Source of the DNA: Prescottella equi
Lineage (GTDB): Bacteria > Actinomycetota > Actinomycetes > Mycobacteriales > Mycobacteriaceae
Reading direction: 5' to 3'
Assembly (NCBI RefSeq): GCF_002094305.1
Contig: NZ_LWTX01000001.1
Location: 1 to 64,000, forward strand
Length of the DNA: 64,000 bases
The notes under the pieces are model-generated. The model was not told the origin of the DNA and ran no database searches. It saw only the letters and a program-made list of their open reading frames with translations. Below are positions 35,743 to 55,476 of this stretch, one piece after another (the first letter of the stretch is position 1; the number at the start of each line of letters is the position of its first letter). The position numbers were made by a program, and so were the translations under genes.

Positions 35743-35854
35743 GGTTCCTCCCCGATACCTGAACCAGACGGAGCGATCGGTCGTCCGCCGAAGAGTGCTT
35801 TCGAGCGAACTGTACTGTGTGGACCCGAAGCGTGCGCCTCGTGGGGGAGGAAAC

Positions 35855-37327: not shown

Positions 37328-38712
37328 TCGTGTCGTGACGCCCGACGGCGGAGCGGCAGCGACGCGAGCACGCAGAGGACGGCGAGTGTGACGATCCCAC
37401 CGGTCGCGGCCAGCGCCACCGTGCGGGGCCGACTGTCGGGTGGTCGCGGCGGCTGCGGTGCCGGGAGCTGTGCCGACGCGAACGCCGGTTCCGTGGCGGC
37501 GTCGTCGGGCAGATCGGCCGTGACCGCGGCAACCGGGTCGACGACACCGCGTCCGACGAACGGATTCCAGCCCTCGGCCGGAGCGTGCGCGGTGGCCTCG
37601 ATCCGGGCGATCACCTGCTGCGCGGTCAGTTGCGGATACCTGGCGCGCACGAGTGCCACCGTCGCGGACACGAGAGGCGCCGCGAAACTGGTTCCGACGA
37701 AGGGCATCTGCTGCCCTTGACCGTTGGACCAGCTGCGCGTCTCGCCGGCGCCGTCGGGTGAGAGCGAGACGATGCCGGTGCCGGGCGCCGCCACGTCCAC
37801 CCACGGGCCACCGAGAGTGAATTCGGATGCCGCGCCGTCCGGGTCGACGGATCCGACCGTGAGTACGTAGTCGTCGTACCACGCTGGAGTCGCGATGGTG
37901 GCCACCGAATCCCACGGGTCCGCGCCGGGATCGAGTGGGTCGGTACCAAGATTCTGGGCCGTGCAGCCGCCGGAGCGGAAGTTCCCCGCTGCCGCGACGA
38001 CCACCGCATTCTTCACGGTGGCCGCGTAGTGCACCGCGGCGCCGAGAGACTGGTCCGCGATGCCGTCGGAGGCCGACCGGCACGCCACTTCGGAAATGTT
38101 GACGACCGTGGCGCCGTTGTCGACCGCCTGCCGGATCGCCATCGCCATGGTCTGGGTGTTGCCGTATCCGGATGTGTTCTGGACGTCGTTCGGATCGTCC
38201 CGTCGGCGGGTTTCCGAGAAGTTGGCGCTCGACTGGCGGATCGTCATGATCCGGGCGTCGGGGGCGCCGCCCGCGAACCCCGACGTCGGTGTGGGTGCGG
38301 CGGCGATGAGACCGGCCACGATGGTTCCGTGTGCGTCACAGTCGCCGGTACCGTCGCCCGTCGACACGTAGTCGCCGCCCGGAATCAGGCCGGGTAGGCG
38401 GGGATGCCGAGCCACGCCGGTGTCGATCACCGCCACGGTCTGACCGGCCCCACGGGTGAGCGGCCACACCGTGTCGAAGCTCATCGTGCGCTGCGGCAGA
38501 GGAACATTCGGTTCGTCGGCCGACGCCGTCGCCGCCGCGCACGAGTTGCGCTGCTCGGTGGGCGCGAGGGGAGCGGGGCGCGCAGCACCCGGAAGCCTGC
38601 CCGGGTCGATCGGTGACGGGACGACCGCGGACCCGACTCCGCCGAGAGACATCGTGGCGACGGCGAGGAGGGAGACGATCGTCGCCGAGCGCGCGGCGGA
38701 GCGCATCCGCAT
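37324..38712 (-). CDS. mycP: Mycosin (subtilisin-type protease MycP)
   Basis: Serine protease of 462 residues with a signal peptide (about 1-30), the catalytic triad Asp97 (VAVIDTGV), His128 (DAHGTIVAG) and Ser342 (GTSFAAPLVSA), the oxyanion Asn244 (AAAGN), and a C-terminal membrane anchor (ALAATGGIVTLAVLCVLASL). Mycosins stabilise the ESX complex and may process substrates. The start overlaps the eccD stop by one base (TGATG at 38714-38710). Confidence 0.95.
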   Translation of the reverse strand: MRMRSAARSATIVSLLAVATMSLGGVGSAVVPSPIDPGRLPGAARPAPLAPTEQRNSCAAATASADEPNVPLPQRTMSFDTVWPLTRGAGQTVAVIDTGVARHPRLPGLIPGGDYVSTGDGTGDCDAHGTIVAGLIAAAPTPTSGFAGGAPDARIMTIRQSSANFSETRRRDDPNDVQNTSGYGNTQTMAMAIRQAVDNGATVVNISEVACRSASDGIADQSLGAAVHYAATVKNAVVVAAAGNFRSGGCTAQNLGTDPLDPGADPWDSVATIATPAWYDDYVLTVGSVDPDGAASEFTLGGPWVDVAAPGTGIVSLSPDGAGETRSWSNGQGQQMPFVGTSFAAPLVSATVALVRARYPQLTAQQVIARIEATAHAPAEGWNPFVGRGVVDPVAAVTADLPDDAATEPAFASAQLPAPQPPRPPDSRPRTVALAATGGIVTLAVLCVLASLPLRRRASRHD

Positions 38713-40187
38713 CACAGCCCGCGAACGGCGACGAAGAGCCCGGACACCCAGCACGCGAGCGGTACCACGGCGGCGATGGCCGCGTAGTCGACGATCTCGG
38801 CGGCGCGGCGCTGCACCGGAGAGAACGTCCGTTGCGGGACGACGACTCCGAGCACGAGAGCCGCGACGACCAGCAGTGCTGTCGTCGCGAACAGCGGGAG
38901 GGCCGCGCTCGGGACGACCACTGCCGTCGCGACCGCCAGCAGCATCAGCACCGCACTGCCCCCGGAGATGAGAGGGACGGCTTGTTCGGCGGAACTGTAC
39001 GTCCGTCCTCGGAACATGAGTACCGTGGCCGCAGCAACAGCCAGAGACGTTCCGGGCCAGTATATTCCGTCGGACGCGCTCGGAGCCGACGCCAGCAGGG
39101 CCCCGGTCACGGTCAGCAGAGTCCACCCCGCGACCAGGCCGGTGAGGTAGCGCCGGGCGTGCTCGGCGCGCCGCTCGACCGTCGCGAACGAGGGCAGGCT
39201 CCGGGCGTCGTCCGGGTCTTCCTCGGTGGGGTCCAGCGATGTGCCCGGTGCCGGCACCGGAGGCAGCGGCAGTTTCGCGAGCATCATCGCGATCCGCGGT
39301 GCGAAGACGAGTCCGAACAGGGCCCCGCCGACGAGCATCGCTCCGACCGACCGCGTCGACTGGTCGGTGAGGACAGCGACGAGCGCGGCGAGCGACCCGA
39401 GCAGGGAGACAGACGCGGCCGTCGTGAACACGGCGTGCCCGACACCTGCGGCACGCAGGGCCACCACCGCGCAGGCGCCGACCATGACGAGCCCGAGCAA
39501 CGTGTCCGGTGGCAGGTCGTCGCCGGGGATGAAGAGGGCGCCGGCCGCGAACGCGATCGGCAGCGCCGCCGCGCCGAGCGTGAGTGCCGCGCCCGCGTCG
39601 TCGTACACCCGGCCGGCCACCGCTCCGGCGACGAGGAACGCCACGACCATCGCGAATGCGGCAACGGCCCCGATCACCGACGCGGTGGCGCCCTCGGTGC
39701 GGAGCAGCACGAACGCCCCGGCCGTGGCGGCGGCGACGGCGATCGCGGAGCCCGTCAGGCGCGCGATCCGCGGTGTCCAGGGATGCGCGTGGCCGGTATC
39801 GGCGACCGCGACGTTGTACATGACGTCGTCGAACAGTGGCGGTGGCGGGCTGGCCTCCACCGAGTCGAAGACGAGGAGTTCGCCGTCGAGGACGCCGTGT
39901 TCCTGGAGGGTCGAGGCCGGTGACAGCGGCGGGCTGCCCACCCTGGAGAGCACCCATCGGGTCGGGTGGAGACGGTCGCCGGCGACGTCGAAGTCGTTGG
40001 CGGCACTGTGCTTCTCCACCAGGTCGGCGATCCCGGGTACCAGCAGCTCGACCGGCACCGAGTTGGGAAGCGCGAGGTCGATCTGGCTGTGCGGTGTGAG
40101 GATCGTCAGCCGGCACAGGTCGGCGGCGCCACGTGGTCGGGCGCCTGTCGTACCGCCGGTCGTCTGGTCGGCGCGCAGCACAGTCAC
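38712..40187 (-). CDS. eccD: Type VII secretion integral membrane protein EccD
   Basis: Protein of 491 residues. It has an N-terminal ubiquitin-like domain (CRLTILTPHSQIDLALPNSV onward) then about 11 membrane segments. EccD dimers line the central channel of ESX complexes. Start GTG 40187, with a G-rich ribosome site 7 nt upstream, removes 37 unlikely residues from the longest reading. It is divergent from eccC and coupled to mycP. Confidence 0.95.
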   Translation of the reverse strand: MTVLRADQTTGGTTGARPRGAADLCRLTILTPHSQIDLALPNSVPVELLVPGIADLVEKHSAANDFDVAGDRLHPTRWVLSRVGSPPLSPASTLQEHGVLDGELLVFDSVEASPPPPLFDDVMYNVAVADTGHAHPWTPRIARLTGSAIAVAAATAGAFVLLRTEGATASVIGAVAAFAMVVAFLVAGAVAGRVYDDAGAALTLGAAALPIAFAAGALFIPGDDLPPDTLLGLVMVGACAVVALRAAGVGHAVFTTAASVSLLGSLAALVAVLTDQSTRSVGAMLVGGALFGLVFAPRIAMMLAKLPLPPVPAPGTSLDPTEEDPDDARSLPSFATVERRAEHARRYLTGLVAGWTLLTVTGALLASAPSASDGIYWPGTSLAVAAATVLMFRGRTYSSAEQAVPLISGGSAVLMLLAVATAVVVPSAALPLFATTALLVVAALVLGVVVPQRTFSPVQRRAAEIVDYAAIAAVVPLACWVSGLFVAVRGL

Positions 40188-40414
40188 GATCGTTCCCCCC
40201 GGAATCTGCGATTCGGATCCCCATCCGAACAGCTCTTTTCGCGAACACCCGCACTGTACCGGCTGCGCCGGGCCGGCTCGACCACACCTCTGCGCCACCT
40301 GTCGGGGTCGTGCGGTAGTTTCCTGTTCGCGAGTCCGGAGCCCGTGGGGGGTTACCCGGTGCGATGGAAGCGTCGCGCCGGGCGGGGGATGCGCAGTCTT
40401 CTAGGGGTGGAAGC

Positions 40415-43400
40415 ATGGGCACTGTACGTTTCGTGCGCAAGGCGCGTCGGGAGTCGCCGCGCGCACCGGGCGGCGAGGTGAGTCTGCAGACGCCTCCCGA
40501 GATCCCCCGGGCCACCCCCGGCAACCTGATGACCAAGCTGCTTCCGCTGGTCATGGTCGCGGCGATGGTGGGAATGGTCGCCCTGATGTTCACGTCGGGG
40601 ATGGCGGCGAGTCCGATGTCGCTGCTCTTCCCGGTGATGATGCTCGTGTCGACACTCGGCATGCTCGCCGGATCCGGACGGGGCGGGGGAGCGAAAGCCG
40701 GTGAGACCAACGAGGACCGCAAGGACTACCTGCGCTACCTCGACCAGTTGCGGCGCGACGCTCTCGACACGGGCAGACAACAGCGTGAGGCGCTCGAGTG
40801 GAGCCATCCCGATCCCGACATGCTCTGGACGCTGTCGGGCGCCTCGCGGATGTGGGAGCGCAGGATCGCCGACACGGACTTCTGCCACGTCCGGGTGGGC
40901 CGCGGCAGCCAGCGGCTTGCCACCCGTCTCATTCCGCCGGAGACGGGGCCGGTAGAGGATCTCGAACCCGTCTCGGCGGTCGCGCTCAGACGCTTCGTTC
41001 GGGCTCACTCGGTGGTCGCCGAGTTGCCGACCGCGGTGTCGCTGCGCGGATTCGCGGCGATCGGCATCGACGGGGACCGGGCGGCAGCGCGGGATCTCTC
41101 GCGCGCGATGCTGCTGCAGCTGTGCACGTTCCACGGTCCGGATCTGCTGCAGGTCGCCGTGGTGTGCGGACCCGACACCCGCAGCGAGTGGGACTGGGTG
41201 AAATGGCTTCCGCACGCGCAGCACTCCGACAGCGTCGACGGGCTCGGCCCGTCCCGCATGATCTACGGCTCCGTCCTGGAACTCGATGCCGCCCTGGGCG
41301 GGCAGCTGGCGATGCGCGGACGATTCTCCCGAACGGCGTCACCGGTGCAGGGAGTTCCGCAGGTCGTGGTCGTGGTCGACGGCGGCATCCTCGCGGGCGA
41401 CATCGCGATGGTCACCGACGGTGGGCTCGACTCGGTGACCGTCCTCGACCTCAGCGGCTACTGCCCCCGACTGACGGCCACGCGTGGACTGCAATTGGTC
41501 GTACAGGACGGTGCGCTCGGAGCCCGCAGCGCCGCGGGCGTGGAGACCTTCGCGGTCGCGGACGCACTCACCGCGCGTGAGGCTCTGTCCGCCGCGCGAC
41601 GCCTCGCGCCCTATCGGCTCGCGGCGGTCGCCGTGGCAGACGGGAGCGGTGACGGCGACGGTCCGGTCGCGGCCGGATGGAGTCGACTCCTCGGACTCGG
41701 CGACGTGGATCGATTCGATCCCGCCCGGGCTTGGACACCCCGTCAGGGACGGGACCGGCTCCGAGTGCCGATCGGCGTCGGCGTGGACGGCAGCCCTGTC
41801 GAACTCGACCTCAAGGAAGCTGCCCAGAACGGAATGGGTCCGCACGGACTGTGCATCGGCGCAACGGGTTCGGGCAAATCCGAGTTCCTGCGCACACTCG
41901 TGCTGGGCCTCCTCGCGACCCATTCGCCGGAGGCGCTGAACCTGGTTCTGGTCGACTTCAAGGGCGGCGCCACCTTCCTGGGGCTGGACAAGGCCCCACA
42001 CGTCGCCGCGGTCATCACGAATCTCTCCGAGGAGATCGCGATGGTCGACCGGATGCGGGATGCGCTCGCGGGCGAGATGAATCGCCGGCAGGAGTTGCTG
42101 CGGGCGGCAGGCAATTTCGCGAACGTCACCGATTACGAGAAGGCCCGCGCCGCAGGTGCCGACCTGGCGCCGCTGCCCGCCCTGTTCATCGTGGTCGACG
42201 AGTTCTCCGAGTTGTTGAGTCAGCAACCCGAGTTCGCCGACCTCTTCGTTGCGATCGGTCGACTCGGGCGATCTCTGCAGATGCATCTGCTGCTCGCGAG
42301 TCAGCGACTCGAGGAGGGCAAGCTTCGCGGCCTGGACAGCCACCTGTCCTATCGAATCGGACTGAAGACGTTCTCGGCCAACGAATCACGCACCGTCCTG
42401 GGCGTCCCGGACGCCTACCATCTGCCGGCGACGCCGGGCGCCGGCTACCTGAAGTGCGACTCCGCGGAGATCGTGCGGTTCCAGGCGTCGTACGTGTCCG
42501 GGCCGTACGAGCGGGAGCGGACGCTCGGCACAACAGGCAGTGCGGCGCCGACCGAGGACCTCCGGCCCCGATTGTTCACCGCGGAACCTGTCGCGCTGCC
42601 TGCCTCCGACGCACCCGTCGTCCAGGCCATCCCGGACGCGCCGCCCGAGGCGGAATCCGACACGAGGTCGCTGCTCGAGGTGCTGGTCGACAGGATCCGG
42701 AACTGCGGTCCGGCCGCGCACGAGGTGTGGCTGCCGCCGCTCGACACTTCACCCACGCTCGACCGGTTGTTGCCGCACACCGAGTCCGGGCTTCCGGCTC
42801 CCGCCGCCGAGGCGCTGCGGGCGCCGATCGGCATCGTCGACCGTCCGTTCGATCAACGCCGCGACGTGCTGTTCGCCGATCTCGCCGGATCGACCGGCAA
42901 TGTCGCGGTCGTCGGTGGACCGCAGTCGGGCAAGTCGACCATGCTGCGGACGCTGATCCTGTCGATGGCCGCGACGCATTCGCCGCGCGAGGTTCAGTTC
43001 TACTGCCTCGATTTCGGTGGTGGCACCCTCGCCGGGCTGTCCGGGCTGCCGCACGTCGGGTCCGTGGCGAACCGTCTCGACGTGGACCTCGTGCGGCGCA
43101 CGGTCGCCGAGATCGCGACCGTGGTCCGCAGACGTGAACGCCGGTTCCGCGAACTGGGTATCGAGTCGATGGCGGAGTTCCGCCGTCGACGCAGGGACGG
43201 CAGTGACGGTCCGGACGGGCTCTCCCGGGATCCGTTCGGGGACGTCTTTCTGGTCGTGGACGGCTGGCCGAGTATCCGCCAGGACTTCGAGGCGCTCGAG
43301 GCGCAGATCGCCGCGCTCGCCGGGCAGGGGCTCTCGTTCGGAGTCCACGTCGTACTGGCGACGCCGCGGTGGGCCGACATCAGGCCGGCGCTCAAGGATC

Positions 43401-44410
43401 AGCTCGGCACGAGGATCGAACTGCGTCTGGGAGATCCGACGGACTCCGACATCGGGCGGGCGAAGGCGATGCTGGTTCCCGCGGGACGCCCGGGACGCGG
43501 CATGACGCGCGACGGGCTGCATCTGCTGGCGGCGCTACCGCGACTGGACGGTGTGGCCCGGAGCGAGGACCTCGGCGTGGGCGTTGCCGACGCGGTGGCG
43601 CGGATCGAGGCGCTGCATCCCGGTGAGTCGGCTCCGCCCGTCCGCATGCTGCCGGAACGGGTTCCGCGTACCGATCTGCTGTCGGCGTCGGCCGGGCGCT
43701 GGCCCGAGGAGGGGCCGTGCCTGTCCGTTCCGATCGGCATCGACGAGGCGGAACTCGCTCCCGTACGTCTCGACCTCTCCGAGCAACCACATTTCCTGGT
43801 GTTCGGCGACAGCTCGTGCGGCAAGACGACGTTGTTGCGCGGAATCTGCCTCGGACTGATGGAATCGAACACTCCGCAGCAGGCGAAGCTGATCATCGGC
43901 GACTATCGCCGAACGTTGCTCGGCGTCGTGGAAGGCGATCACCTCGCGGGATACGCGGCTTCCGAAACGACTTTCACCACGATGATGAACGACCTCGCCG
44001 GAATCCTCGCGAGCCGGATGCCGGGCCCGGACACCACGCAGCAACAGTTGCGTGAACGGTCGTGGTGGTCGGGTCCGGAGATCTACGTCGTGGTGGACGA
44101 CTACGACCTCGTGGCTACGTCCAGCGGGAATCCGCTCACGCCGCTGATCGATTACCTCGCGCACGCCAAGGACCTCGGTTTGCACGTGATCATCGCGCGT
44201 CGATCCGGCGGTGCGTCCCGGGCACTGTACGAACCTGTCATTGCCCGGATCCGAGACCTGATACCCGCCGGCCTCGTCATGAGCGGGAACCGCGACGAAG
44301 GCAACCTCGTCGGAGCGGTTCGTCCGTCCGAGATGCCACCCGGTCGCGGCACCTTCGTGACCCGCCGCGGAACCTCGCTCGTCCAGGTCGCATGGTTGCC
44401 CCCGTTGTGA
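40415..44410 (+). CDS. eccC: Type VII secretion ATPase EccC (fused)
   Basis: Protein of 1,331 residues with two N-terminal membrane segments (about 40-90) and three FtsK/SpoIIIE ATPase domains: Walker A GATGSGKS near 482, GGPQSGKS near 834, GDSSCGKT near 1131. Only domain 1 shows a full Walker B with acidic pair (FIVVDEFSEL); domains 2 and 3 read LVVDGWPS and VVVDDYDL, as expected if substrate binding replaces hydrolysis. ATG 40415 is preferred over 40364 because MGTVRFVRKARR fits the family start. It drives secretion and recruits WXG substrates. Confidence 0.96.
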   Translation: MGTVRFVRKARRESPRAPGGEVSLQTPPEIPRATPGNLMTKLLPLVMVAAMVGMVALMFTSGMAASPMSLLFPVMMLVSTLGMLAGSGRGGGAKAGETNEDRKDYLRYLDQLRRDALDTGRQQREALEWSHPDPDMLWTLSGASRMWERRIADTDFCHVRVGRGSQRLATRLIPPETGPVEDLEPVSAVALRRFVRAHSVVAELPTAVSLRGFAAIGIDGDRAAARDLSRAMLLQLCTFHGPDLLQVAVVCGPDTRSEWDWVKWLPHAQHSDSVDGLGPSRMIYGSVLELDAALGGQLAMRGRFSRTASPVQGVPQVVVVVDGGILAGDIAMVTDGGLDSVTVLDLSGYCPRLTATRGLQLVVQDGALGARSAAGVETFAVADALTAREALSAARRLAPYRLAAVAVADGSGDGDGPVAAGWSRLLGLGDVDRFDPARAWTPRQGRDRLRVPIGVGVDGSPVELDLKEAAQNGMGPHGLCIGATGSGKSEFLRTLVLGLLATHSPEALNLVLVDFKGGATFLGLDKAPHVAAVITNLSEEIAMVDRMRDALAGEMNRRQELLRAAGNFANVTDYEKARAAGADLAPLPALFIVVDEFSELLSQQPEFADLFVAIGRLGRSLQMHLLLASQRLEEGKLRGLDSHLSYRIGLKTFSANESRTVLGVPDAYHLPATPGAGYLKCDSAEIVRFQASYVSGPYERERTLGTTGSAAPTEDLRPRLFTAEPVALPASDAPVVQAIPDAPPEAESDTRSLLEVLVDRIRNCGPAAHEVWLPPLDTSPTLDRLLPHTESGLPAPAAEALRAPIGIVDRPFDQRRDVLFADLAGSTGNVAVVGGPQSGKSTMLRTLILSMAATHSPREVQFYCLDFGGGTLAGLSGLPHVGSVANRLDVDLVRRTVAEIATVVRRRERRFRELGIESMAEFRRRRRDGSDGPDGLSRDPFGDVFLVVDGWPSIRQDFEALEAQIAALAGQGLSFGVHVVLATPRWADIRPALKDQLGTRIELRLGDPTDSDIGRAKAMLVPAGRPGRGMTRDGLHLLAALPRLDGVARSEDLGVGVADAVARIEALHPGESAPPVRMLPERVPRTDLLSASAGRWPEEGPCLSVPIGIDEAELAPVRLDLSEQPHFLVFGDSSCGKTTLLRGICLGLMESNTPQQAKLIIGDYRRTLLGVVEGDHLAGYAASETTFTTMMNDLAGILASRMPGPDTTQQQLRERSWWSGPEIYVVVDDYDLVATSSGNPLTPLIDYLAHAKDLGLHVIIARRSGGASRALYEPVIARIRDLIPAGLVMSGNRDEGNLVGAVRPSEMPPGRGTFVTRRGTSLVQVAWLPPL

Positions 44411-45804
44411 CGTCACGGTCCGTCGTGGTCCACCTCGGCGTCGACACCGTGTGGGTCGGGACGGCCACCGGCGTCGACGCGTCTGCGGACGAGGAGCTGC
44501 GCGAGTGCGTGGATGCGATCGACGACGAGTTCGTCGACTCGGCACAACACGTTCGGCCGACCGTCGAGGCGCTCGCATCCGTGATCGCGCGGGCTGTCAG
44601 GAAGGTCTCGGAGCGAGACGGATTCGTCGACGTGATGACGATTCTCCATCCGTCGCACTGGGGACGGACCCGTCGTGGCGTGCTCGGCGCCGCTGCGCGA
44701 CGATCCGCGAACGAGGTGGAGACCCTGCCGATCGCGCTCGCGGTTCCCGCGCCGACCAGTTCGGGGGCATGGATCGTCGTCGAGTGTGCCGAGACGACCA
44801 CCACCGCCGTTGCCGTTCGCCCGGGCCCACAGGGCACGTCTGAGATCACGGCCTGCGCGTTCGCGCCGAGCACCGGAGTGCTCGATCTCGAACCCGGGGC
44901 CGATGCCAGTGCCAGTGCCGGTGCCAGTGCCAGCGCCGGTACCGACGCCGCTCCCGATACCGGAATCGAGGTCGGTTCGGCGTGGATCGCGGTGGTGAAC
45001 GAACTGATCGACGAGGTGAGTGGGGACGAGGGCGCCGGGCCCGTGTGCGTCGTCGGCCCATCCGCCGAGACGGTCGCCCGTCTGCTGTCGACCGACGCCG
45101 GCCGCGACGTGCGGGTGGTGCCGGAACCAGCGCTCGTCGCCTGCCGCACCGCGTCCTCCCAGTCGGGTGCAGGTTCAGGTTCTGGCTCAGATGCGTCCGA
45201 GCCGGCACGGCGATCGTGGGTCGATCAGGTGCCGCGTCCGGAGCCGGTGCGCCCGACCGGTAGGTCCGTCGTCATCGGGGCGTCACTCGCGGCGGTGGCA
45301 CTGCTGCTCGCGGTGGGGTCGATGCTCGCCGTGCGGTACACACGCGGATCGGAGTCTCAACCCGCCGCCGCGCCTCTGCAGCGCGTCGAGATCGGCAGGG
45401 CGAGTACCGAACTGCCCGATTCGTGGCAGATTCGGGGTGACCGATCCGGCCGGCTGGACCTGGTGCCGGACGACGGCCGCGACGGCCGGATCGTGGTGTT
45501 GCCCACCGAACTCGCCGTCGGCTCCGCCTGGGATTCGGTGGTGCGCGGGCTCGAACGCAAGATCGGCGAGCGTGGGGCCGCGGGACCATTCTCCGATTTC
45601 GCCGCGGACGTCGAGTTCGGCGGGCGGCGGTCCGCCGCGTACGTCGAGGCACCCGCCGACGGATCGCGGGTGCGTTGGTACGTGCTGTTGGAAGACGACG
45701 TGCAGGTGAGCGTGGGTTGTCAGTACCGCGATGCCGGGTGGGAGGCGATCGCCGACGATTGCGAGCAGGCGGTTCGCGCCGTGACGGTCGCTTCCGCGCG
45801 GTGA
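44407..45804 (+). CDS. Type VII secretion-associated protein (Rv3446c family)
   Basis: Protein of 465 residues. The N-terminal half (VVVHLGVDTVWVGTATG) resembles an actin/Hsp70-like fold start, and one membrane segment (VVIGASLAAVALLLAVGSML) is followed by an outside domain of about 150 residues. Between the halves are Ala/Ser-Gly repeats (from about 44,905) and Gly-Ser repeats. It occupies the slot between eccC and the esx pair found in ESX-4 loci. GTG 44407 overlaps eccC by 4 nt; ATG 44392 in frame is an alternative. Function unknown. Confidence 0.8.
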   Translation: MTSRSVVVHLGVDTVWVGTATGVDASADEELRECVDAIDDEFVDSAQHVRPTVEALASVIARAVRKVSERDGFVDVMTILHPSHWGRTRRGVLGAAARRSANEVETLPIALAVPAPTSSGAWIVVECAETTTTAVAVRPGPQGTSEITACAFAPSTGVLDLEPGADASASAGASASAGTDAAPDTGIEVGSAWIAVVNELIDEVSGDEGAGPVCVVGPSAETVARLLSTDAGRDVRVVPEPALVACRTASSQSGAGSGSGSDASEPARRSWVDQVPRPEPVRPTGRSVVIGASLAAVALLLAVGSMLAVRYTRGSESQPAAAPLQRVEIGRASTELPDSWQIRGDRSGRLDLVPDDGRDGRIVVLPTELAVGSAWDSVVRGLERKIGERGAAGPFSDFAADVEFGGRRSAAYVEAPADGSRVRWYVLLEDDVQVSVGCQYRDAGWEAIADDCEQAVRAVTVASAR

Positions 45805-45986
45805 ATCCGTGTCCGGCGAAGGCGTTCGAAAAAGTCTCGGGACGAATGGAACCGAATTCACCTGTCGCTGCGTCGAACCATATGTAGGCGCGAACTGGTA
45901 GAGGCCGAGGCCGGCTGTGGTTGTTTCACGGGGGGCTGACCCGGGCCGGGGCGCGGAAACGCGAAAACGATTCCGAAGGAGTCAGA

Positions 45987-46301
45987 GTGAGCGATCAGAT
46001 GAAGACCACAGTCTCGACCATGGAGGACACGTCGCGTCGCGTCGGCGACGTGCGCGAGGAGATCGCCGGGCTCCTCGGGAACCTCCGGTCGGAGGTGGAC
46101 GGGATTCGCGGGGCATGGGAGGGGTCGGCAGCGATCGCGTTCCACAGCCTCATGGAGCGCTGGGACGGCAGCGCCAAGAAGCTCAACGATGCGCTCCAGG
46201 CGATCGGCGAGAACATCAAGTCCAACAGCGTCACGTTCGATACGACGCAGCAGGACCACACGGCGTCGCTCAACAACGTCGCCGGCAGCCTGAACATCTG
46301 A
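45987..46301 (+). CDS. esxU: WXG100 protein, EsxU-like
   Basis: Small helical-hairpin protein of 104 residues with the turn motif W44-E45-G46. It should pair with the next gene product and be the ESX-4 substrate. No Tyr is present, so there is no YxxxD/E export signal. GTG 45987 follows GGAG by 6 nt. A 180-nt gap upstream probably holds its own promoter. Confidence 0.9.
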   Translation: MSDQMKTTVSTMEDTSRRVGDVREEIAGLLGNLRSEVDGIRGAWEGSAAIAFHSLMERWDGSAKKLNDALQAIGENIKSNSVTFDTTQQDHTASLNNVAGSLNI

Positions 46302-46341: not shown

Positions 46342-46623
46342 ATGATGCGTTATTCGTTCGGCCAGATCGAGGCGCTCCAGCTTCGAATCGACGCCCTCCA
46401 GAAGGAGATGAACGGGAAGCTGGGCGATCTCAAGAGTTCGATCGCCCCGATGGTCGCGGAGTGGGACGGCGCTGCGTCCGCCGCGTACCAGGAGCACCAG
46501 GCCAAGTGGGACGCGGCCGCCGACGAGCTCAACCAGATCCTCGACGCCGTGGGCCGTGTCGTCGGCCAGGGCAACGCGGACATGCAGCAGGTGAACACCG
46601 CCGCTGCCAACAGCTGGGCGTAG
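46342..46623 (+). CDS. esxT: WXG100 protein, EsxT-like
   Basis: Helical-hairpin protein of 93 residues with W41-D42-G43 between helices. It lies 40 nt after esxU, with GAGGAG before the start, and is expected to form a heterodimer with it. The C-terminus has no YxxxD/E motif either (ends AAANSWA), unlike EsxB. Confidence 0.92.
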   Translation: MMRYSFGQIEALQLRIDALQKEMNGKLGDLKSSIAPMVAEWDGAASAAYQEHQAKWDAAADELNQILDAVGRVVGQGNADMQQVNTAAANSWA

Positions 46624-50643: not shown

Positions 50644-50716
50644 CGGAACCGTACGGCCACCTCCTGCGTCGAACTGGGCATAAGAGTCCAGATCGACAGC
50701 GCGGAAGGTGGAACCG

Positions 50717-51019
50717 ATGGCAGACGTGGTCTCGATCGACGTCGCGAGGGTACGGGCAGCGGCTCGGTCGCTGCAGGCGAGTGCGGAGGGATCCAGCGGT
50801 CTCGTCTGGCAGGTAGGCCAGTGCCGGTTCGTCAACGGTCTGGGTGATCCGGGCAGGGAACGCGCGATCCGTGAGGGCTACCTGCGGCTTGCCCGGGCGA
50901 TCGGCGCGTTCTCGACGGGGTCGTCGGCCCTTGCGCGAGGACTCGTCGAAACGGTCGACGCCTACGACGGCCGGGACACCGCGAACGCCGGCAACGTCGT
51001 GTCGCTCGGGGCGCTGTGA
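50717..51019 (+). CDS. Small helical protein with YxxxD motif, Rv3440c-like (possible type VII substrate partner)
   Basis: Protein of 100 residues, predicted as two helices (about 5-25 and 48-80) with a break around 35-47. The helix end is followed by Y83-D-G-R-D87, a YxxxD type VII export signal in the expected place. It has no WxG turn. ATG 50717 is chosen over GTG 50708. Its TGA shares one base with the next start, so the two proteins are made together. The M. tuberculosis order glmM-Rv3440c-Rv3439c matches. Function unknown. Confidence 0.7.
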   Translation: MADVVSIDVARVRAAARSLQASAEGSSGLVWQVGQCRFVNGLGDPGRERAIREGYLRLARAIGAFSTGSSALARGLVETVDAYDGRDTANAGNVVSLGAL

Positions 51020-52653
51020 TGGAAGCCCTGTCGAGGGCCGCCGCTGACGGGCTGCAGTTCTTCGCGACCTTCGTTCCCCGGGCGGCTTTCGTGGCCGAGC
51101 GGGCGGGCACAGGGGACACGTTCCCGGCCTACGACGAGATCGAGGCACGCTACTTCGAGCAGAACGACATCCGACTCGACGCCCTGGCCGCCGACATCGA
51201 TGTCGTGACACGGGTGGCGGCAGACATCGACCAGCGGTGCGACGACCAGGAGCGGGTGCGTACCGCCGTCGCCGAGGCATGGCAGGGGCACACGTCCGAT
51301 GCCGTCGACGCGCATTTCGCCGGACACCTCGAGCGGGCGGCCCGCCTGCAGCAGGACCTGGCCGATTTGCGATGTGCGCTGGCCGAGGCCGACCGTGTGC
51401 TGCGGGAAGCGGCTGCACGCAAGGCGGAGTGGGTCGCGAGTCTCGACCCGACTCGTGCCTGCGGCCGCACCGTCGCGGAGGTCGACCGAATCGTCGAGAA
51501 CGCCGCGAGCTTCGGCACGGCGGCGGACGATGCCGCGAACTGGGCGGTGGAAGTGTTCCTCGCCCGGATCCGCGACACCACAGCGGAATTCGTCGACCTG
51601 TGCGATGCCACGGAATCCACGGTCGACGCGGTGTTCCGGAACCTCGACGCTGCATTCTGCGCTGTCGACGACAGCGCGTTCCGGGCGCCGGCGGGATTCG
51701 AAGAGATCTGTACCGGCATCGCGGCGCCTGCGCCACAGCCGTGCCCGCAGCCGTCGTCGACACCCACCACGACCCCGGCGTGCGCCACAGTCTCCGAGCC
51801 CTCTACGCCCTCCGTGCCATCGCCCACCAGTAGTCTGGCCGGCCTGACGTGCGCCGGGACGGGAGTCGCCGCAGCCCGGACGGCCGGAACGGCGCCGACT
51901 GCACCTGCCGGCGTCCTGCCGTCGATGCCCACTCCCGGCGTCACGATCAGAGCGGCCGAGACGGGGGTATCGGTCGGAACGGGCGGCTCGCTCGCGATCG
52001 ACGGCGCGGTCCGTGCTGCGGGTGCGATCGTCGGCGCGGTGGCCGAGATGGCACTCGGCATCGTGGGTGACGTGGTGGTCGAGCTGTCGGAGTCGGTATG
52101 CGAGACCGGGAGTGTCCCGGAGCCGGGCCCGGAGCGACAGGACGGGTGCGGGTGCGATTGCGAGTGCAGTTGCGGCACCGGGACACCCGAACCCGAACCG
52201 CCTGCGCCGGCACCGGAACCAGGGCCGACGACCTCGGAACCAGCGTCGACGAGTCCGGAGCCGGCACCGGAACCTCAGTGTCCCGAACCCACGGCTGCTG
52301 CTCCTGCCGAGACGGTCGCTGAGCCGGCACCGGAGCCGGAATGCGAACCCGAGCCGGAATGCGAACCCGAACCCGAGCCGCCCGCGCCGGCCGCCTACTG
52401 CGTACCGGGGCCGGAACAGTCGGGGCCCGAACCGTCGGCCCCCGAACAGGCGGCCCCGGAACAGGCGGCAGGGCAATCCGACTCCGGCGGGACCGTTCCT
52501 GGAGCGGGATCCAATCCGGTCCGCGGCAGCAGGACACCGGCACCGGCGCCCGTCGTCGCCGGCGCCGTCGAACCGACCCTCGCCGAGGTGGGCCCACCGG
52601 CCCCCGAAGGCGATGATCAGGGAGTCGCGCTCGCCGAGGCCGGCGCGATGTGA
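51019..52653 (+). CDS. WxG protein with Pro/Glu- and Cys-rich C-terminus, Rv3439c-like (possible type VII substrate)
   Basis: Protein of 544 residues in three parts. Residues 1-225 are helical with W88-Q89-G90 at a turn, as in WXG/PPE-type proteins. Residues 235-360 are Pro/Thr/Ala-rich with one hydrophobic stretch (about 325-355) that could enter a membrane. Residues 361-510 are tandem Pro-Glu units with a dense Cys knot near 377-385 (alternating CxC) and about 19 Cys in total. ATG 51019 couples it to the previous gene. No enzyme motif is seen. Export by ESX-4 is inference from signals and position. Confidence 0.65.
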   Translation: MEALSRAAADGLQFFATFVPRAAFVAERAGTGDTFPAYDEIEARYFEQNDIRLDALAADIDVVTRVAADIDQRCDDQERVRTAVAEAWQGHTSDAVDAHFAGHLERAARLQQDLADLRCALAEADRVLREAAARKAEWVASLDPTRACGRTVAEVDRIVENAASFGTAADDAANWAVEVFLARIRDTTAEFVDLCDATESTVDAVFRNLDAAFCAVDDSAFRAPAGFEEICTGIAAPAPQPCPQPSSTPTTTPACATVSEPSTPSVPSPTSSLAGLTCAGTGVAAARTAGTAPTAPAGVLPSMPTPGVTIRAAETGVSVGTGGSLAIDGAVRAAGAIVGAVAEMALGIVGDVVVELSESVCETGSVPEPGPERQDGCGCDCECSCGTGTPEPEPPAPAPEPGPTTSEPASTSPEPAPEPQCPEPTAAAPAETVAEPAPEPECEPEPECEPEPEPPAPAAYCVPGPEQSGPEPSAPEQAAPEQAAGQSDSGGTVPGAGSNPVRGSRTPAPAPVVAGAVEPTLAEVGPPAPEGDDQGVALAEAGAM

Positions 52654-52661
52654 GGCCGGGA

Positions 52662-53546
52662 TCAGCCGCCGAGCAGTCGTCCGGCCTGGGTGCCCGCGCG
52701 GTGCGCGGCGAGTTCACGCGGATCGAGAGGGTGACCGTCGTGCTCGGCGTCCTCGCGGACGGCGGGATGCGTGCCGGGGAAGTGGGCGTCGGTGTCGGCG
52801 AACGCGGAGTACGCCTTGTCGCCGGTGAGCCGGTGCAGCAGGAAGCCGGTCAGCATGGCGCGCGTCACGCGCTGCGTCCGCCGCTCCGATCCGCCGACTC
52901 CGAGGAAACCGAGCAGGCGGCGCCCCTCGACGAGTCCGGAGTCGGATGCCTTGTCGACGACGCGCAGCAGCGTCGATCCTCGCCAGGCGTCGTCGAGAGC
53001 GAGGGCGTCGCTGTTCAGGGAGTCGACGTCCTTCGCGCCGGCGAGGATCAGTCCCGCGGCGGAGACCCGGCCCGCGGCGACCGCCGAGGACGGTGCCGTC
53101 GGCGAGGGGAACAGCGCGGCGACGGCCTTGATCGTCGTGTGCTGCGCCGCCGCGAGGACGGCGGCCCCGGCCCCCATGCCGTGCCCGGCGACGGCGAGGC
53201 GTTCCGGTTGCACGCTGATCCGGCCGGAGCCCAGCCGGACACCGGTGCAGATGTCGAGGGCTGTGACGAGATCGGCGGCGAGTCCGAGATGTGAGGGAAC
53301 CGGCCCACGTTCGGTGCCCGGTGCGGCGACGACGATTCCCCACGACGCGAGGTGTTCGAAGGTGCCGGCGTAGTTGTCGGGACCCACCATCCAGTCGTGA
53401 CCGAAGGCGACGGCGGGCAGGTTGAATCCCTCGGCGGGTGTGTAGACGACGCCGGGCTGTCCTGCGAGCGCGAGGTCGCCGCGCAGCACCTTGTGCGGGC
53501 CACGCTTGGACAGCTTGGATACCAGGGATTTAGGTGTCTGCGCCAC
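52662..53546 (-). CDS. Alpha/beta hydrolase-like protein without catalytic Ser (Rv3438-like)
   Basis: Protein of 294 residues with a dienelactone-hydrolase-like fold: LPAVAFGHDWMVGPDNY, then the elbow G121-H-G-M-G125, where Gly123 replaces the nucleophile Ser or Cys. It may be a pseudoenzyme or binding protein. The longest reading would begin at 53615, overlapping the divergent glmS start, so GTG 53546 is preferred; no clear ribosome site is visible. It converges on the WxG gene with an 8-nt gap. Confidence 0.7.
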   Translation of the reverse strand: MAQTPKSLVSKLSKRGPHKVLRGDLALAGQPGVVYTPAEGFNLPAVAFGHDWMVGPDNYAGTFEHLASWGIVVAAPGTERGPVPSHLGLAADLVTALDICTGVRLGSGRISVQPERLAVAGHGMGAGAAVLAAAQHTTIKAVAALFPSPTAPSSAVAAGRVSAAGLILAGAKDVDSLNSDALALDDAWRGSTLLRVVDKASDSGLVEGRRLLGFLGVGGSERRTQRVTRAMLTGFLLHRLTGDKAYSAFADTDAHFPGTHPAVREDAEHDGHPLDPRELAAHRAGTQAGRLLGG

Positions 53547-53613
53547 GGGTGTGACGTTATCCGATCGCAGACCGAGTTCGCTCCACACGGTCGCCCAAGT
53601 ACCCTGGTGAACC

Positions 53614-55476
53614 ATGTGCGGAATCGTGGGGTACGTAGGCCACCGCCAGGCTCTGGATGTCGTGGAGAAGGCGTTGCAGCGGATGGAATACCGCGGCTAC
53701 GACTCCGCCGGCGTCGCGATCCTGGACGGCAAGGGGGGCTTGGCGACCGAGCGCAAGGCAGGACGTCTCGACAATCTGAAGGCAGAGCTCGACGAGATCG
53801 GACGGGACTCGTTCGTCGGCACTACCGGCATGGGACACACGCGGTGGGCGACGCACGGCAAGCCCACCGACCGCAATGCGCATCCGCATCGGGATGCCAG
53901 CGGTCGGTTCGCCGTCGTGCACAACGGCATCATCGAGAACTTCGCTCCTTTGCGCGGTGAACTCGAGGCCGCGGGCGTCGATCTGCTCAGTGACACCGAC
54001 TCCGAGGTTGCCGTCCATCTCGTCGCCAAGGCGTACGAGTCGGGGCCCACCGCGGGTGACTTCCTGCAGAGCGCGCTGGCGGTGCTGCGCCGGCTCGAGG
54101 GTGCGTTCACGCTGGTGTTCACGCACGCCGACCACCCCGACATGATCATTGCGGCGCGTCGGTCGACTCCGCTCGTCGTCGGTGTCGGCGACGGCGAGAC
54201 CTTCGTCGGCTCCGACGTCGCGGCGTTCATCGAGCACACCCGGGACGCGGTCGAGCTCGGCCAGGACCAGGTGGTGGTGATCACCGCGGACGGCTACTCG
54301 ATCAGCGACTTCGCGGGCAACGAGCAGCAGGGCCGTCCCTTCCGGATCGACTGGGACCTGCAGGCCGCCGAGAAGGGTGGCCACGACTACTTCATGCTCA
54401 AGGAGATCCAGGAGCAGCCGCAGGCCGTCGCCGACACCCTGCGTGGCCACTTCGTCGATCGCACGATCGTGCTCGACGAGCAGCGGCTGTCCGATCAGGA
54501 ACTGCGCGACGTCGACAAGGTGTTCGTCGTGGCGTGCGGTAGCGCGTACCACTCGGGTCTGCTCGCGAAGTACGCGATCGAACACTGGACGCGGCTTCCC
54601 GTCGAGGTCGAGCTCGCGAGCGAGTTCCGCTACCGCGACCCGGTGCTGGATCGCTCCACGCTCGTCGTCGCGATCTCGCAGTCGGGTGAGACGGCGGACA
54701 CGCTCGAGGCCGTCAAGCACGCGAAGGACCAGAAGGCCCGGGTGCTGGCGGTCTGCAACACCAACGGTGCGCAGATTCCCCGCGAGGCCGACGCCGTCCT
54801 CTACACGCGGGCCGGTCCGGAGATCGCCGTGGCCTCCACCAAGGCCTTCCTCGCCCAGGTGACCGCGAACTACCTGGTGGGGCTGGCGTTGGCGCAGGCG
54901 CGCGGCACGAAGTACCCGGACGAGGTGGCCCGGGAGTACGCCGATCTCGCGGCGATGCCGGGCCTGGTGTCCCGTGTCCTCGAGACGGTCGAGCCGGTGC
55001 GTGCGCTGGCCCGGCAGTTCGCGGACTCGTCGGCGGTGCTGTTCCTGGGCCGCCACGTGGGCTACCCGGTGGCGCTCGAGGGTGCGCTCAAGCTCAAGGA
55101 GTTGGCGTACATGCACGCGGAGGGCTTCGCGGCCGGTGAGCTCAAGCACGGCCCGATCGCGTTGATCGAGGAGGGCCTGCCGGTCATCGTCGTGATGCCG
55201 TCGCCGAAGGGGCGTGCGGTGCTGCACTCGAAGCTGGTGTCGAACATCCAGGAGATCAAGGCGCGCGGCGCGACGACGATCGTCATCGCGGAGGAGGGCG
55301 ACGAGGCGGTGCGGGCGCATGCCGACCATCTCATCGAGATCCCGGCGGCGCCGACGCTGCTGCAGCCGCTGCTGTCCACGATTCCGCTGCAGGTTTTCGC
55401 GGCGGAGGTCGCGGTCGCCCGCGGGCTGGACGTGGACAAGCCGCGCAACCTCGCGAAGTCCGTCACCGTCGAATAG
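53614..55476 (+). CDS. glmS: Glucosamine-6-phosphate synthase (isomerizing)
   Basis: Enzyme of 620 residues making glucosamine 6-phosphate from fructose 6-phosphate and glutamine. Cys2 (MCGIVGYVGHRQALD) is the glutaminase nucleophile. The glutaminase domain (1-240) is followed by two SIS domains (VVACGSAYHSGLLAK, SQSGETADTLEA) and the C-terminal AKSVTVE. TACCCT at 53599-53604, only 10 nt before the ATG, and no good ribosome site suggest a leaderless or near-leaderless transcript. Confidence 0.97.
   Translation: MCGIVGYVGHRQALDVVEKALQRMEYRGYDSAGVAILDGKGGLATERKAGRLDNLKAELDEIGRDSFVGTTGMGHTRWATHGKPTDRNAHPHRDASGRFAVVHNGIIENFAPLRGELEAAGVDLLSDTDSEVAVHLVAKAYESGPTAGDFLQSALAVLRRLEGAFTLVFTHADHPDMIIAARRSTPLVVGVGDGETFVGSDVAAFIEHTRDAVELGQDQVVVITADGYSISDFAGNEQQGRPFRIDWDLQAAEKGGHDYFMLKEIQEQPQAVADTLRGHFVDRTIVLDEQRLSDQELRDVDKVFVVACGSAYHSGLLAKYAIEHWTRLPVEVELASEFRYRDPVLDRSTLVVAISQSGETADTLEAVKHAKDQKARVLAVCNTNGAQIPREADAVLYTRAGPEIAVASTKAFLAQVTANYLVGLALAQARGTKYPDEVAREYADLAAMPGLVSRVLETVEPVRALARQFADSSAVLFLGRHVGYPVALEGALKLKELAYMHAEGFAAGELKHGPIALIEEGLPVIVVMPSPKGRAVLHSKLVSNIQEIKARGATTIVIAEEGDEAVRAHADHLIEIPAAPTLLQPLLSTIPLQVFAAEVAVARGLDVDKPRNLAKSVTVE

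What the first reader, a model, noticed from the sequence alone, without database searches (positions are those of the whole stretch)
50717..52653. Coupled YxxxD / WxG protein pair after glmM: a split type VII export signal
Protein 1 (100 aa) carries Y83xxxD87 after its second helix and no WxG. Protein 2 (544 aa) carries W88-Q-G90 and no C-terminal YxxxD. Their stop and start share a base. This is the signal layout of PE/PPE pairs, yet neither protein is PE or PPE. They sit 4 kb from ESX-4, whose own WXG100 proteins lack YxxxD/E. M. tuberculosis keeps the same two genes (Rv3440c, Rv3439c) in the same place. Hypothesis: an ancestral ESX-4 substrate pair with a Pro/Glu/Cys-rich surface domain.
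Basis: partly seen in the sequence, partly recalled or inferred. Interest (0 to 1): 0.82.

Follow-up and report, generated by a model that had tools for sequence, protein, structure and literature searches.

The report
ESX-4 export pair with conserved tail
Two overlapping genes next to a bacterial protein-export machine (ESX-4) look like paired cargo for it: each carries half of the export signal, they have the same type of switch as the machine, they tend to break or vanish where it is lost, and the larger protein ends in a conserved tail that may report back to the regulator that turns the machine on.

Summary
P1 (50717-51019, 100 aa, Y83xxxD87, no WxG) and P2 (51019-52653, 544 aa, W88xG90) share one base, 4 kb from ESX-4. 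The pair follows glmM in many Mycobacteriaceae; in Mycobacterium the P2 profile matches 241 of 248 genomes.

P1 is EspC/EsxB-like: its YxxxD aligns with EsxB's. P2's N-terminal domain is WXG100-like.

(1) Where ESX-4 is lost the pair is often deleted or broken (G011, G253, G275, several Mycobacterium). Three apparent exceptions remain (G332, G392, G419).
(2) A SigM-type site (GGAAC-N17-CGTC) precedes P1 in 60 of 65 pairs (1.7% of random windows); such a site also precedes the ESX-4 WXG100 genes in 36 of 61 loci.
(3) P2 ends, after a Pro-rich linker, in a conserved tail (LAEAGPL-COOH type; 57 of 65). Its M. tuberculosis counterpart Rv3439c is reported as Ppr2, a binder of the PDZ domain of Rip1, the protease that controls SigM.

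Best reading: an Esp-type heterodimeric ESX-4 substrate, possibly closing a Rip1-SigM feedback loop.

The parts
45848..45874 (+). SigM-type (ECF) promoter-like site upstream of the ESX-4 WXG100 genes: GGAACCGAATTCACCTGTCGCTGCGTC
   Evidence: present in all 12 loci of the window's genus scored (36 of 61 loci overall)
45987..46301 (+). ESX-4 WXG100 gene 1 (WEG; no YxxxD/E)
   Evidence: Pfam PF06013 70.5 bits; translation; start codon read
46342..46623 (+). ESX-4 WXG100 gene 2 (WDG; no C-terminal YxxxD/E)
   Evidence: Pfam PF06013 55.2 bits; sequence
40364..44410 (+). eccC (ESX-4 ATPase, EccCa + EccCb domains)
   Evidence: TIGR03924 and TIGR03925 above cut-offs
44422..45804 (+). Rv3446c-type T7SS-associated gene
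   Evidence: TIGR03931 108.7 bits, cut-off 47.6
38712..40298 (-). eccD
   Evidence: PF19053 and PF08817
37324..38718 (-). mycP (mycosin); start approximate
   Evidence: TIGR03921
35483..37327 (+). eccB (true start probably further in)
   Evidence: PF05108 591 bits
34093..36432 (-). ORF containing eccE (match is residues 248-584, so the gene is shorter)
   Evidence: TIGR03923 244.9 bits
49165..50643 (+). glmM, upstream anchor gene
50645..50670 (+). SigM-type (ECF) promoter-like site in the glmM-P1 gap: GGAACCGTACGGCCACCTCCTGCGTC
   Evidence: strict motif in a 190-nt window at the P1 start in 60 of 65 distinct pairs, against 207 of 12456 random windows
50717..51019 (+). P1, EspC/EsxB-like small partner (100 aa)
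   Evidence: PF10824 matched by 18 of 31 family members at E<=0.01, best 3.3e-9, the window's own P1 not among them (16.1 bits); profile match to EsxB E 4e-4
50963..50977 (+). codons of Y83-DGR-D87, the YxxxD export motif of P1
   Evidence: aligned on EsxB YSRAD
51019..51019 (+). base shared by the P1 stop and the P2 start
51019..52653 (+). P2, large partner (544 aa), counterpart by position of Rv3439c/Ppr2
   Evidence: synteny; the correspondence to Rv3439c rests on recalled gene order
51019..51699 (+). P2 helical N-terminal domain (residues 1-227), WXG100-like
   Evidence: PF06013 E 2.5e-4, below the cut-off; profile vs EsxB E 1.1e-5 at WRG
51280..51288 (+). codons of W88-Q-G90 (WxG)
51991..52098 (+). 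conserved hydrophobic/amphipathic segment, about residues 325-360
   Evidence: alignment; Kyte-Doolittle maximum 2.05 at residue 336
52147..52173 (+). Cys cluster, residues 377-385 (seen in the window's genus)
52579..52593 (+). first LAExG motif (LAEVG, residues 521-525)
52630..52650 (+). conserved C-terminal tail LAEAGAM-COOH, residues 538-544
   Evidence: 57 of 65
52662..53615 (-). hydrolase gene, downstream anchor
   Evidence: PF12740
53614..55476 (+). glmS, downstream anchor (name from recall of gene order; product not tested by a family search)
   Evidence: synteny

Best explanation
P1 and P2 form an Esp-type heterodimeric substrate of the ESX-4 type VII secretion system. P1 is an EspC/EsxB-like hairpin giving the YxxxD half of the signal; P2 brings the WxG half on its helical N-terminal domain, followed by a disordered Pro-rich linker and a conserved C-terminal tail. 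They are transcribed from a SigM-type ECF promoter of the same kind as the one before the ESX-4 WXG100 genes, so cargo and machine are made together. Shown here: sequences, motif conservation, synteny, promoter-like site, frequent co-loss with ESX-4, tail conservation. Inferred: pairing, recognition by EccC, transcription by SigM, export into the envelope. More speculative (about 0.25): once outside, the P2 tail meets the PDZ domain of the site-2 protease Rip1 and tunes release of SigM, closing a feedback loop on ESX-4.
For: P1 profile matches EsxB over its full length with YxxxD on YSRAD; 18 of 31 P1 members match PF10824 EspC; P2 domain matches EsxB at WRG and WXG100 in 9 of 31 members. YxxxD/E kept in 52 and WxG in 55 of 65 distinct pairs. 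The pair follows glmM in distant genera. Natural losses: in G011 the 20-kb stretch lacks eccB, mycP, eccC, the Rv3446c-type gene and both WXG100 genes, has no P2, and its P1 remnant reads YPRQN, whereas the same-genus G004 keeps them all (no EccC match in G011 at E<=1e-100); G253 and G275 lack eccC and both pair genes. In Mycobacterium, P2 is weak or absent in 15 of 24 genomes without an EccC4 match against 3 of 224 with one (Fisher 2e-15); for those 15 the lack of EccC4 was confirmed with every candidate scored. Promoter-like site in 60 of 65 pairs and, in all 12 loci of the window's genus, before both P1 and the WXG100 genes. SigM is known to induce ESX-4 genes (PMC10117145, PMC8593097 passages). 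The same signal split is described for EspC/EspF versus EspA/EspE (PMC6107294 legend). Rv3439c is reported as Ppr2, a Rip1-PDZ binder (PMC6963305 passage); Rip1 controls SigM (PMC10449499 passage).
Against: No secretion or interaction data; complex prediction could not be run. The window's P1 scores below Pfam's EspC cut-off (16.1 vs 23.5) and its P2 below the WXG100 cut-off (19.3 vs 27.3); in the PDB profile search two designed coiled coils outscore EsxB. G332, G392 and G419 carry P1 and P2 though no EccC4 match was found; six more EccC4-negative genomes (G345, G351, G384, G401, G420, G540) also have a P2 match, G540 having eccC4 pieces in two frames. One search scored only two candidates per genome, and L140, L141 and L143 show the glmM neighbourhood only. 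G440 has EccC4 but no P2 match; G411 likewise, but has no glmM match either. In 13 of 65 pairs P1 lacks YxxxD/E; two of these (L068, L074) have lost WxG as well and still keep the P2 tail. Covariation of the two half-signals (Fisher 2e-4) is not decided by a tree-aware test: only 3 supported independent pairs. Mycobacterium tails lack the final Leu/Met, though the Rip1 binding was reported there, so the PDZ role of the tail is uncertain. EsxU and EsxT are reported as ESX-4 substrates in M. abscessus (PMC9401124 passage), so ESX-4 can have other cargo.
Confidence: 0.7

Rival explanations
1. P2 (Ppr2) is a non-exported or otherwise exported Rip1 adapter; the WXG100-like fold is an inherited scaffold and the tail is the working part. 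Loss with ESX-4 reflects loss of the shared SigM regulon.
For: Two-hybrid binding of Rv3439c to the Rip1 PDZ domain (PMC6963305); tail kept in lineages whose half-signals are altered (L068, L074); G332, G392 and G419 keep the pair though EccC4 was not found.
Against: Rip1's PDZ domain is thought to face outside the cytoplasm (recalled), so P2 would need export; P1 with its EsxB-type signal would be unexplained; no Sec-type N-terminus is apparent (Kyte-Doolittle maximum of the first 40 residues 1.05).
Confidence: 0.13
2. The pair is an ESX-4 accessory factor (chaperone, adaptor or regulator at EccC) rather than cargo.
For: Gene neighbourhood, the same promoter type and co-loss fit an accessory role equally well.
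Against: The layout is that of known substrate pairs (EspC/EspA, EspF/EspE in PMC6107294) and a long disordered extension is unusual for a chaperone (inference).
Confidence: 0.12
3. The pair belongs with glmM/glmS (amino-sugar supply) and only happens to sit near ESX-4.
For: Found downstream of glmM in the loci inspected, also where no ESX-4 gene was found in about 15 kb upstream (L140, L141).
Against: It has its own ECF promoter-like site, is missing or decayed where ESX-4 is missing while glmM and glmS stay (L024, L106, L107), and bears type VII signals.
Confidence: 0.04

Closest known systems
EspC/EspA and EspF/EspE substrate pairs of ESX-1
   Same: A small partner with YxxxD/E and a large partner with WxG plus a variable C-terminal part; 18 of 31 P1 relatives match the EspC family PF10824; split described in PMC6107294 (legend).
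   Different: Linked to ESX-4, not ESX-1; SigM-type promoter-like site; conserved C-terminal tail; P2 matches no EspA_EspE model at E<=1.
PE/PPE pairs (e.g. PE25/PPE41; example recalled)
   Same: Adjacent genes, split YxxxD/WxG signal.
   Different: No PE or PPE family match for either protein at E<=1.
EsxA/EsxB and EsxU/EsxT (WXG100 pairs)
   Same: P1 aligns full-length with EsxB including its YxxxD; P2 residues around 50-130 align with the WXG100 fold.
   Different: P2 is 544 aa with a linker and tail; the window's own ESX-4 WXG100 pair lacks YxxxD/E and does not match P1 or P2 by profile.
Ppr2 / Rv3439c of M. tuberculosis
   Same: By gene order (Rv3441c glmM, Rv3440c, Rv3439c; recalled) P2 is its counterpart; Rv3439c is named a Rip1-PDZ interactor (PMC6963305, one passage).
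   Different: No type VII role or ESX-4 link was seen for it: of the six papers holding Rv3440c or Rv3439c I saw one passage in three and the listing of the other three. Its sequence could not be fetched by name here.

Membership tests
EspC-type T7SS small partner (PF10824) | score over the curated Pfam cut-off | tested here: not met
   window P1 16.1 bits vs 23.5; 18 of 31 relatives match at E<=0.01, best 3.3e-9
EspC-type T7SS small partner (PF10824) | about 100 aa, YxxxD/E near the C-terminus, no WxG | tested here: met
   52 of 65 distinct relatives keep YxxxD/E
WXG100 superfamily (P2 N-terminal domain) | profile match with WxG at the turn | tested here: inconclusive
   19.3 bits vs cut-off 27.3 for full P2; 9 of 31 members E<=0.01; EsxB structure sequences E 1.1e-5; no hhalign match to the window's own WXG100 pair
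PE/PPE | PE or PPE domain match | tested here: not met
   no match at E<=1
T7SS heterodimeric substrate | split signal on adjacent, overlapping genes | tested here: met
   the two genes overlap in most relatives
T7SS heterodimeric substrate | physical heterodimer | not testable with these tools
ESX-4 substrate | export depends on EccC4 | not testable with these tools
   needs a secretome of an eccC4 mutant
ESX-4 substrate | genetic dependence on ESX-4 (lost when ESX-4 is lost) | tested here: inconclusive
   for: G011, G253, G275; 15 of 24 EccC4-negative vs 3 of 224 EccC4-positive Mycobacterium genomes have weak or no P2; against: 9 of the 24 keep a P2 match, three of them (G332, G392, G419) with P1 and P2 seen in the locus
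SigM regulon | GGAAC-N16/17-CGTC type promoter (consensus recalled) | tested here: met
   60 of 65 pairs
SigM regulon | transcription depends on SigM | not testable with these tools
   needs transcript mapping with and without sigM
PDZ ligand | conserved extreme C-terminus with a hydrophobic last residue | tested here: inconclusive
   core kept in 57 of 65; last residue L or M in 47 of 65; the eight Mycobacterium tails end Q, E, G, S or R
Sortase substrate (LPXTG/LAXTG) | Thr at position 4, then a membrane anchor and charged tail | tested here: not met
   no Thr at that place in the tails printed, and the protein ends there

The most novel reading that the evidence does not exclude
ESX-4 reports its own activity. 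SigM makes the machine and the P1-P2 pair; ESX-4 exports the pair; the exported P2 tail binds the PDZ domain of the site-2 protease Rip1 and changes cleavage of anti-SigM, so that export of this cargo tunes SigM and hence ESX-4 itself. This would be a secretion-coupled feedback loop through intramembrane proteolysis; none was seen in the papers looked at here (search listings and the passages read).
Probability: 0.22. Interest if true: 0.92.

Novelty: new variant of a known kind. Interest (0 to 1): 0.72.

Why it matters
What ESX-4 exports is poorly settled. PMC10117145 (passages) notes that M. [quoted passage not shown] abscessus, where EsxT has an HxxxD/E-type motif (PMC9401124), and ESX-4 has been tied to EsxE/EsxF and toxin export in M. 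tuberculosis (PMC8593097). A conserved pair with the full split signal and a SigM-type site beside ESX-4, with a P2 match in 241 of 248 Mycobacterium genomes (230 of them at E<=1e-30), gives a concrete further candidate. It also joins two facts that were apart: Rv3439c as a Rip1-PDZ binder, and SigM (controlled through Rip1) as the switch of ESX-4, which M. smegmatis turns on at cell contact during DNA transfer (reviews, passages).

Tried and rejected
Single-protein search with P1 reached only its own genus (13 of 61 genomes); profiles were needed. The first profile A1 found 60 of 301 family genomes; the wide A4 profile hits 228 of 301 but includes EspC paralogues, so orthology was judged by the glmM neighbourhood at the loci fetched. 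A6 was too diverse for a collection scan; A7 worked (29 named loci). Profile comparison of P1 and P2 with WXG100 proteins of the window's genus gave nothing. Covariation of YxxxD with WxG looked strong (Fisher 2.2e-4) but the tree-aware test had only 3 supported independent pairs (63 of 65 rows) and decides nothing. A search for EAGx-hydrophobic ends in the window's genome gave 3 matches including P2 (control: 3 forward, 7 reverse), so no second tail-bearing protein is established. The motif GGAAC-N15..18-CGTC is not enriched in the whole window (7 vs 7.2 expected); only position and conservation make it meaningful. Sortase-type reading of LAEAG/LPQVG rejected. No paper on secretion of the pair was seen (searches); the primary Ppr1/Ppr2 paper and two SigM papers are not held. 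Of the 82 loci given to, 10 gave no pair (L024, L063, L106, L107, L109-L113, L115); L063 is the same contig as L075 and was lost for want of glmM. From the 72 pairs, L116 (spurious, genus g3) and six duplicates were dropped, leaving 65. The four EccC4-negative genomes that one search does not list were inferred by comparing its list (G509, G511, G514, G540). Of the 14 eccC-negative family genomes, five loci were inspected (G011, G253, G275, G070, G120); G120 proved to have a divergent eccC at 37% identity, so it is not a loss; G070 shows neither ESX-4 nor pair. G001 has no glmM match, so its missing pair is uninformative. G209, missed by A4, has a divergent pair beside an intact eccC.
Full report
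1. The observation. P1 (50717-51019) is 100 aa with Y83-DGR-D87 and no WxG; P2 (51019-52653) is 544 aa with W88-Q-G90. The genes share base 51019. Neither window WXG100 protein has a C-terminal YxxxD/E.

2. What the proteins are. The window's P1 alone is below the Pfam cut-off for EspC (16.1 vs 23.5 bits), but 18 of 31 relatives match EspC at E<=0.01 (best 3.3e-9), and a profile of 31 relatives matches EsxB (CFP-10) over its full length at E 4e-4, with the P1 YxxxD on EsxB YSRAD. Two designed coiled-coil chains score higher in that table, a sign that part of the score is helical composition. P2 residues 54-130 match WXG100 weakly (19.3 vs 27.3 bits); 9 of 31 relatives match at E<=0.01 and the profile hits EsxB at E 1.1e-5 on its WRG turn. 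hhalign against six WXG100 sequences of the window's genus found nothing. No PE, PPE or EspA_EspE match exists for either protein at E<=1. No Sec-like N-terminus is evident; the most hydrophobic 19-residue stretch of P2 starts at residue 336 (2.05). P2 227-544 is 19% Pro, 17% Ala, 11% Glu. The Cys cluster at 377-385 was seen only in the window's genus (against the sequences).

3. Conservation and place. Of 13 same-genus genomes besides the window's own, 12 have P1, each directly after glmM; P2 follows in 11 of 12, one of them frameshifted. Outside the genus the first P1 profile brought the count to 60 of 301 family genomes and a wider one to 228 of 301, including EspC paralogues. At the loci fetched the pair lies downstream of glmM, 12 to 3600 bases away, mostly with the hydrolase and glmS genes behind it. 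In genus g50, taken as Mycobacterium from the 106 PE domains of one member, the P2 profile matches 241 of 248 genomes, 230 of them at E<=1e-30. In 65 distinct orthologous pairs, 52 P1 keep YxxxD/E and 55 P2 keep WxG; both are kept in 49, both lost in 7, only Y lost in 6, only WxG lost in 3.

4. Natural experiments. In G011 (L024), of the window's own genus, the 20-kb stretch shows no eccB, mycP, eccC, Rv3446c-type or WXG100 gene, while the aminotransferase, rplM, rpsI, glmM, hydrolase and glmS remain; P2 is gone, the P1 remnant reads YPRQN, and the P1 promoter site is gone too; the genome has no EccC match at E<=1e-100. The same-genus G004 (L021) keeps all of them. G253 and G275 (genus g23) show no eccC and neither pair gene, only eccE and, in G275, WXG100 fragments; G275 still has a promoter-like site after glmM with no gene behind it. 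G301 has neither an eccC nor a P1 match, but is 74% complete and has no glmM match. In Mycobacterium, P2 is weak (E>1e-30) or absent in 15 of 24 genomes without an EccC4 match (E<=1e-200) and in 3 of 224 with one (Fisher 2e-15, not corrected for relatedness). The 15 were re-tested with every candidate scored and none has an EccC4; the other nine (G332, G345, G351, G384, G392, G401, G419, G420, G540) rest, which scored two candidates per genome. Of the three positives with weak or no P2, G427 ends at a contig edge, G411 has no glmM match, and G440 has ESX-4 and a P1 piece but no P2 match. G389 and G424, single-contig 3.27 Mb genomes (leprosy-bacillus-like by size, recalled), have no ESX-4 at the locus beyond one WXG100 fragment and hold P1 and P2 only as pieces, the P2 pieces in different frames; M. 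leprae is reported to have lost ESX-4 (PMC4791881 passage). Against: G332, G392 and G419 hold P1 and P2 in the locus with no EccC4 found, and G540 has eccC4 pieces in two frames with the pair in place. So dependence is strong but not shown to be absolute.

5. A shared kind of switch. The strict site GGAAC-N15..18-CGTC, recalled as the SigM-type consensus, occurs 7 times in the window against 7.2 expected, yet one copy lies at 50645-50670 in the 73-base glmM-P1 gap and one at 45848-45874 upstream of the WXG100 genes. In relatives it stands in a 190-nt window at the P1 start in 60 of 65 pairs, with a 17-base spacer in 59 of those 60, against 207 of 12456 random windows of the same loci. In the 350 nt upstream of the first WXG100 gene it is present in 36 of 61 loci scored, including all 12 of the window's genus; it was not found there in the remaining 25. 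The spacer bases differ between species, so the site is probably kept by selection (inference). Published work has SigM overexpression inducing esxU, esxT and other ESX-4 genes (PMC8593097 and PMC10117145, passages). An M. abscessus gene called a WXG100 family type VII target, MAB_3747c, rises with esxT, esxU and sigM on PQS treatment (PMC11768086, passages); that it belongs to this pair is a guess from gene numbers.

6. The tail. After an unalignable linker, P2 ends mostly in L-x-E-A-G-x-[L/M]; in the eight Mycobacterium loci it ends LPQVG-[Q/E/G/S] (seven) or LPKAGR (one). By one pattern 57 of 65 fit; the eight misses include two Nocardia-type sequences, one near-miss (AAEAGPL) and two cut by a frameshift or a contig end. 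The last residue is Leu or Met in 47 of 65. A conserved free C-terminus at the end of a disordered linker suggests a peptide ligand (inference). A review states that Rv3439c is Ppr2, a two-hybrid partner of the Rip1 PDZ domain, beside Ppr1 (PMC6963305, one passage; the primary paper, cited, is not held and was not read). Rip1 regulates SigM through cleavage of RsmA (PMC10449499, passages). That Mycobacterium lacks the hydrophobic last residue is a point against a classical PDZ ligand.

7. Mechanism. Shown: sequence layout, conservation, promoter-like site, frequent co-loss, tail. Inferred: SigM makes ESX-4 and the pair; P1 and P2 pair so that Y83xxxD87 and W88xG90 form one signal; EccC takes it and ESX-4 exports it. 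Speculative: the exported P2 tail meets the Rip1 PDZ domain, thought to lie outside the cytoplasm (recalled), and adjusts SigM release.

8. Known versus new. It works like ESX-1 Esp pairs, where EspC, EspF and EspJ carry YxxxD/E and EspA, EspE and EspK carry WxG (PMC6107294 legend; that paper calls Esp proteins ESX-1 specific). Membership in EspC is not met for the window protein by score; 18 of 31 relatives match at E<=0.01. New here: the link to ESX-4, the promoter-like site, the co-loss and the tail. The full-text searches run here showed no paper linking Rv3440c/Rv3439c to ESX-4, but most hits were seen only as listings and most subscription papers are not held.

Noticed in passing
G000:C17:24215-24502 (L104) and G000:C1:157678-157965 (L105), outside the window: Two more EspC-like proteins with YDATD, each followed by a large ORF with WxG (WDG, WTG); the second has its own GGAACC...CGTC site just upstream. 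They look like further type VII substrate pairs.
   Followed up: partly
46789-48030: A class III aminotransferase gene sits between the ESX-4 WXG100 genes and rplM in the window and in relatives of its genus and of g23; it stays where ESX-4 is gone (L024, L106, L107).
   Followed up: no
L055, L059, L076 and similar (g6 and named Rhodococcus/Rhodococcoides loci): Here one of the ESX-4 WXG100 proteins does carry YxxxD/E (27 of 105 ORFs), so the motif may have been lost in the window's genus and in Mycobacterium.
   Followed up: partly
L055-L061, L063, L072: P2 of these genera has an extra stretch of about 55 similar residues (GHxARIAL...SFELRIGPxGLP), perhaps a small beta domain, before the tail; no Pfam match there in five P2 tested.
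   Followed up: no
L107:13800-13825: In G275, which lost ESX-4 and the pair, a promoter-like site remains directly after glmM with no P1 or P2 gene found behind it.
   Followed up: no
34093-36432: The window's ESX-4 locus includes eccE (TIGR03923), a component that PMC4791881 ascribes to the later ESX clusters rather than to ESX-4 (passage).
   Followed up: no
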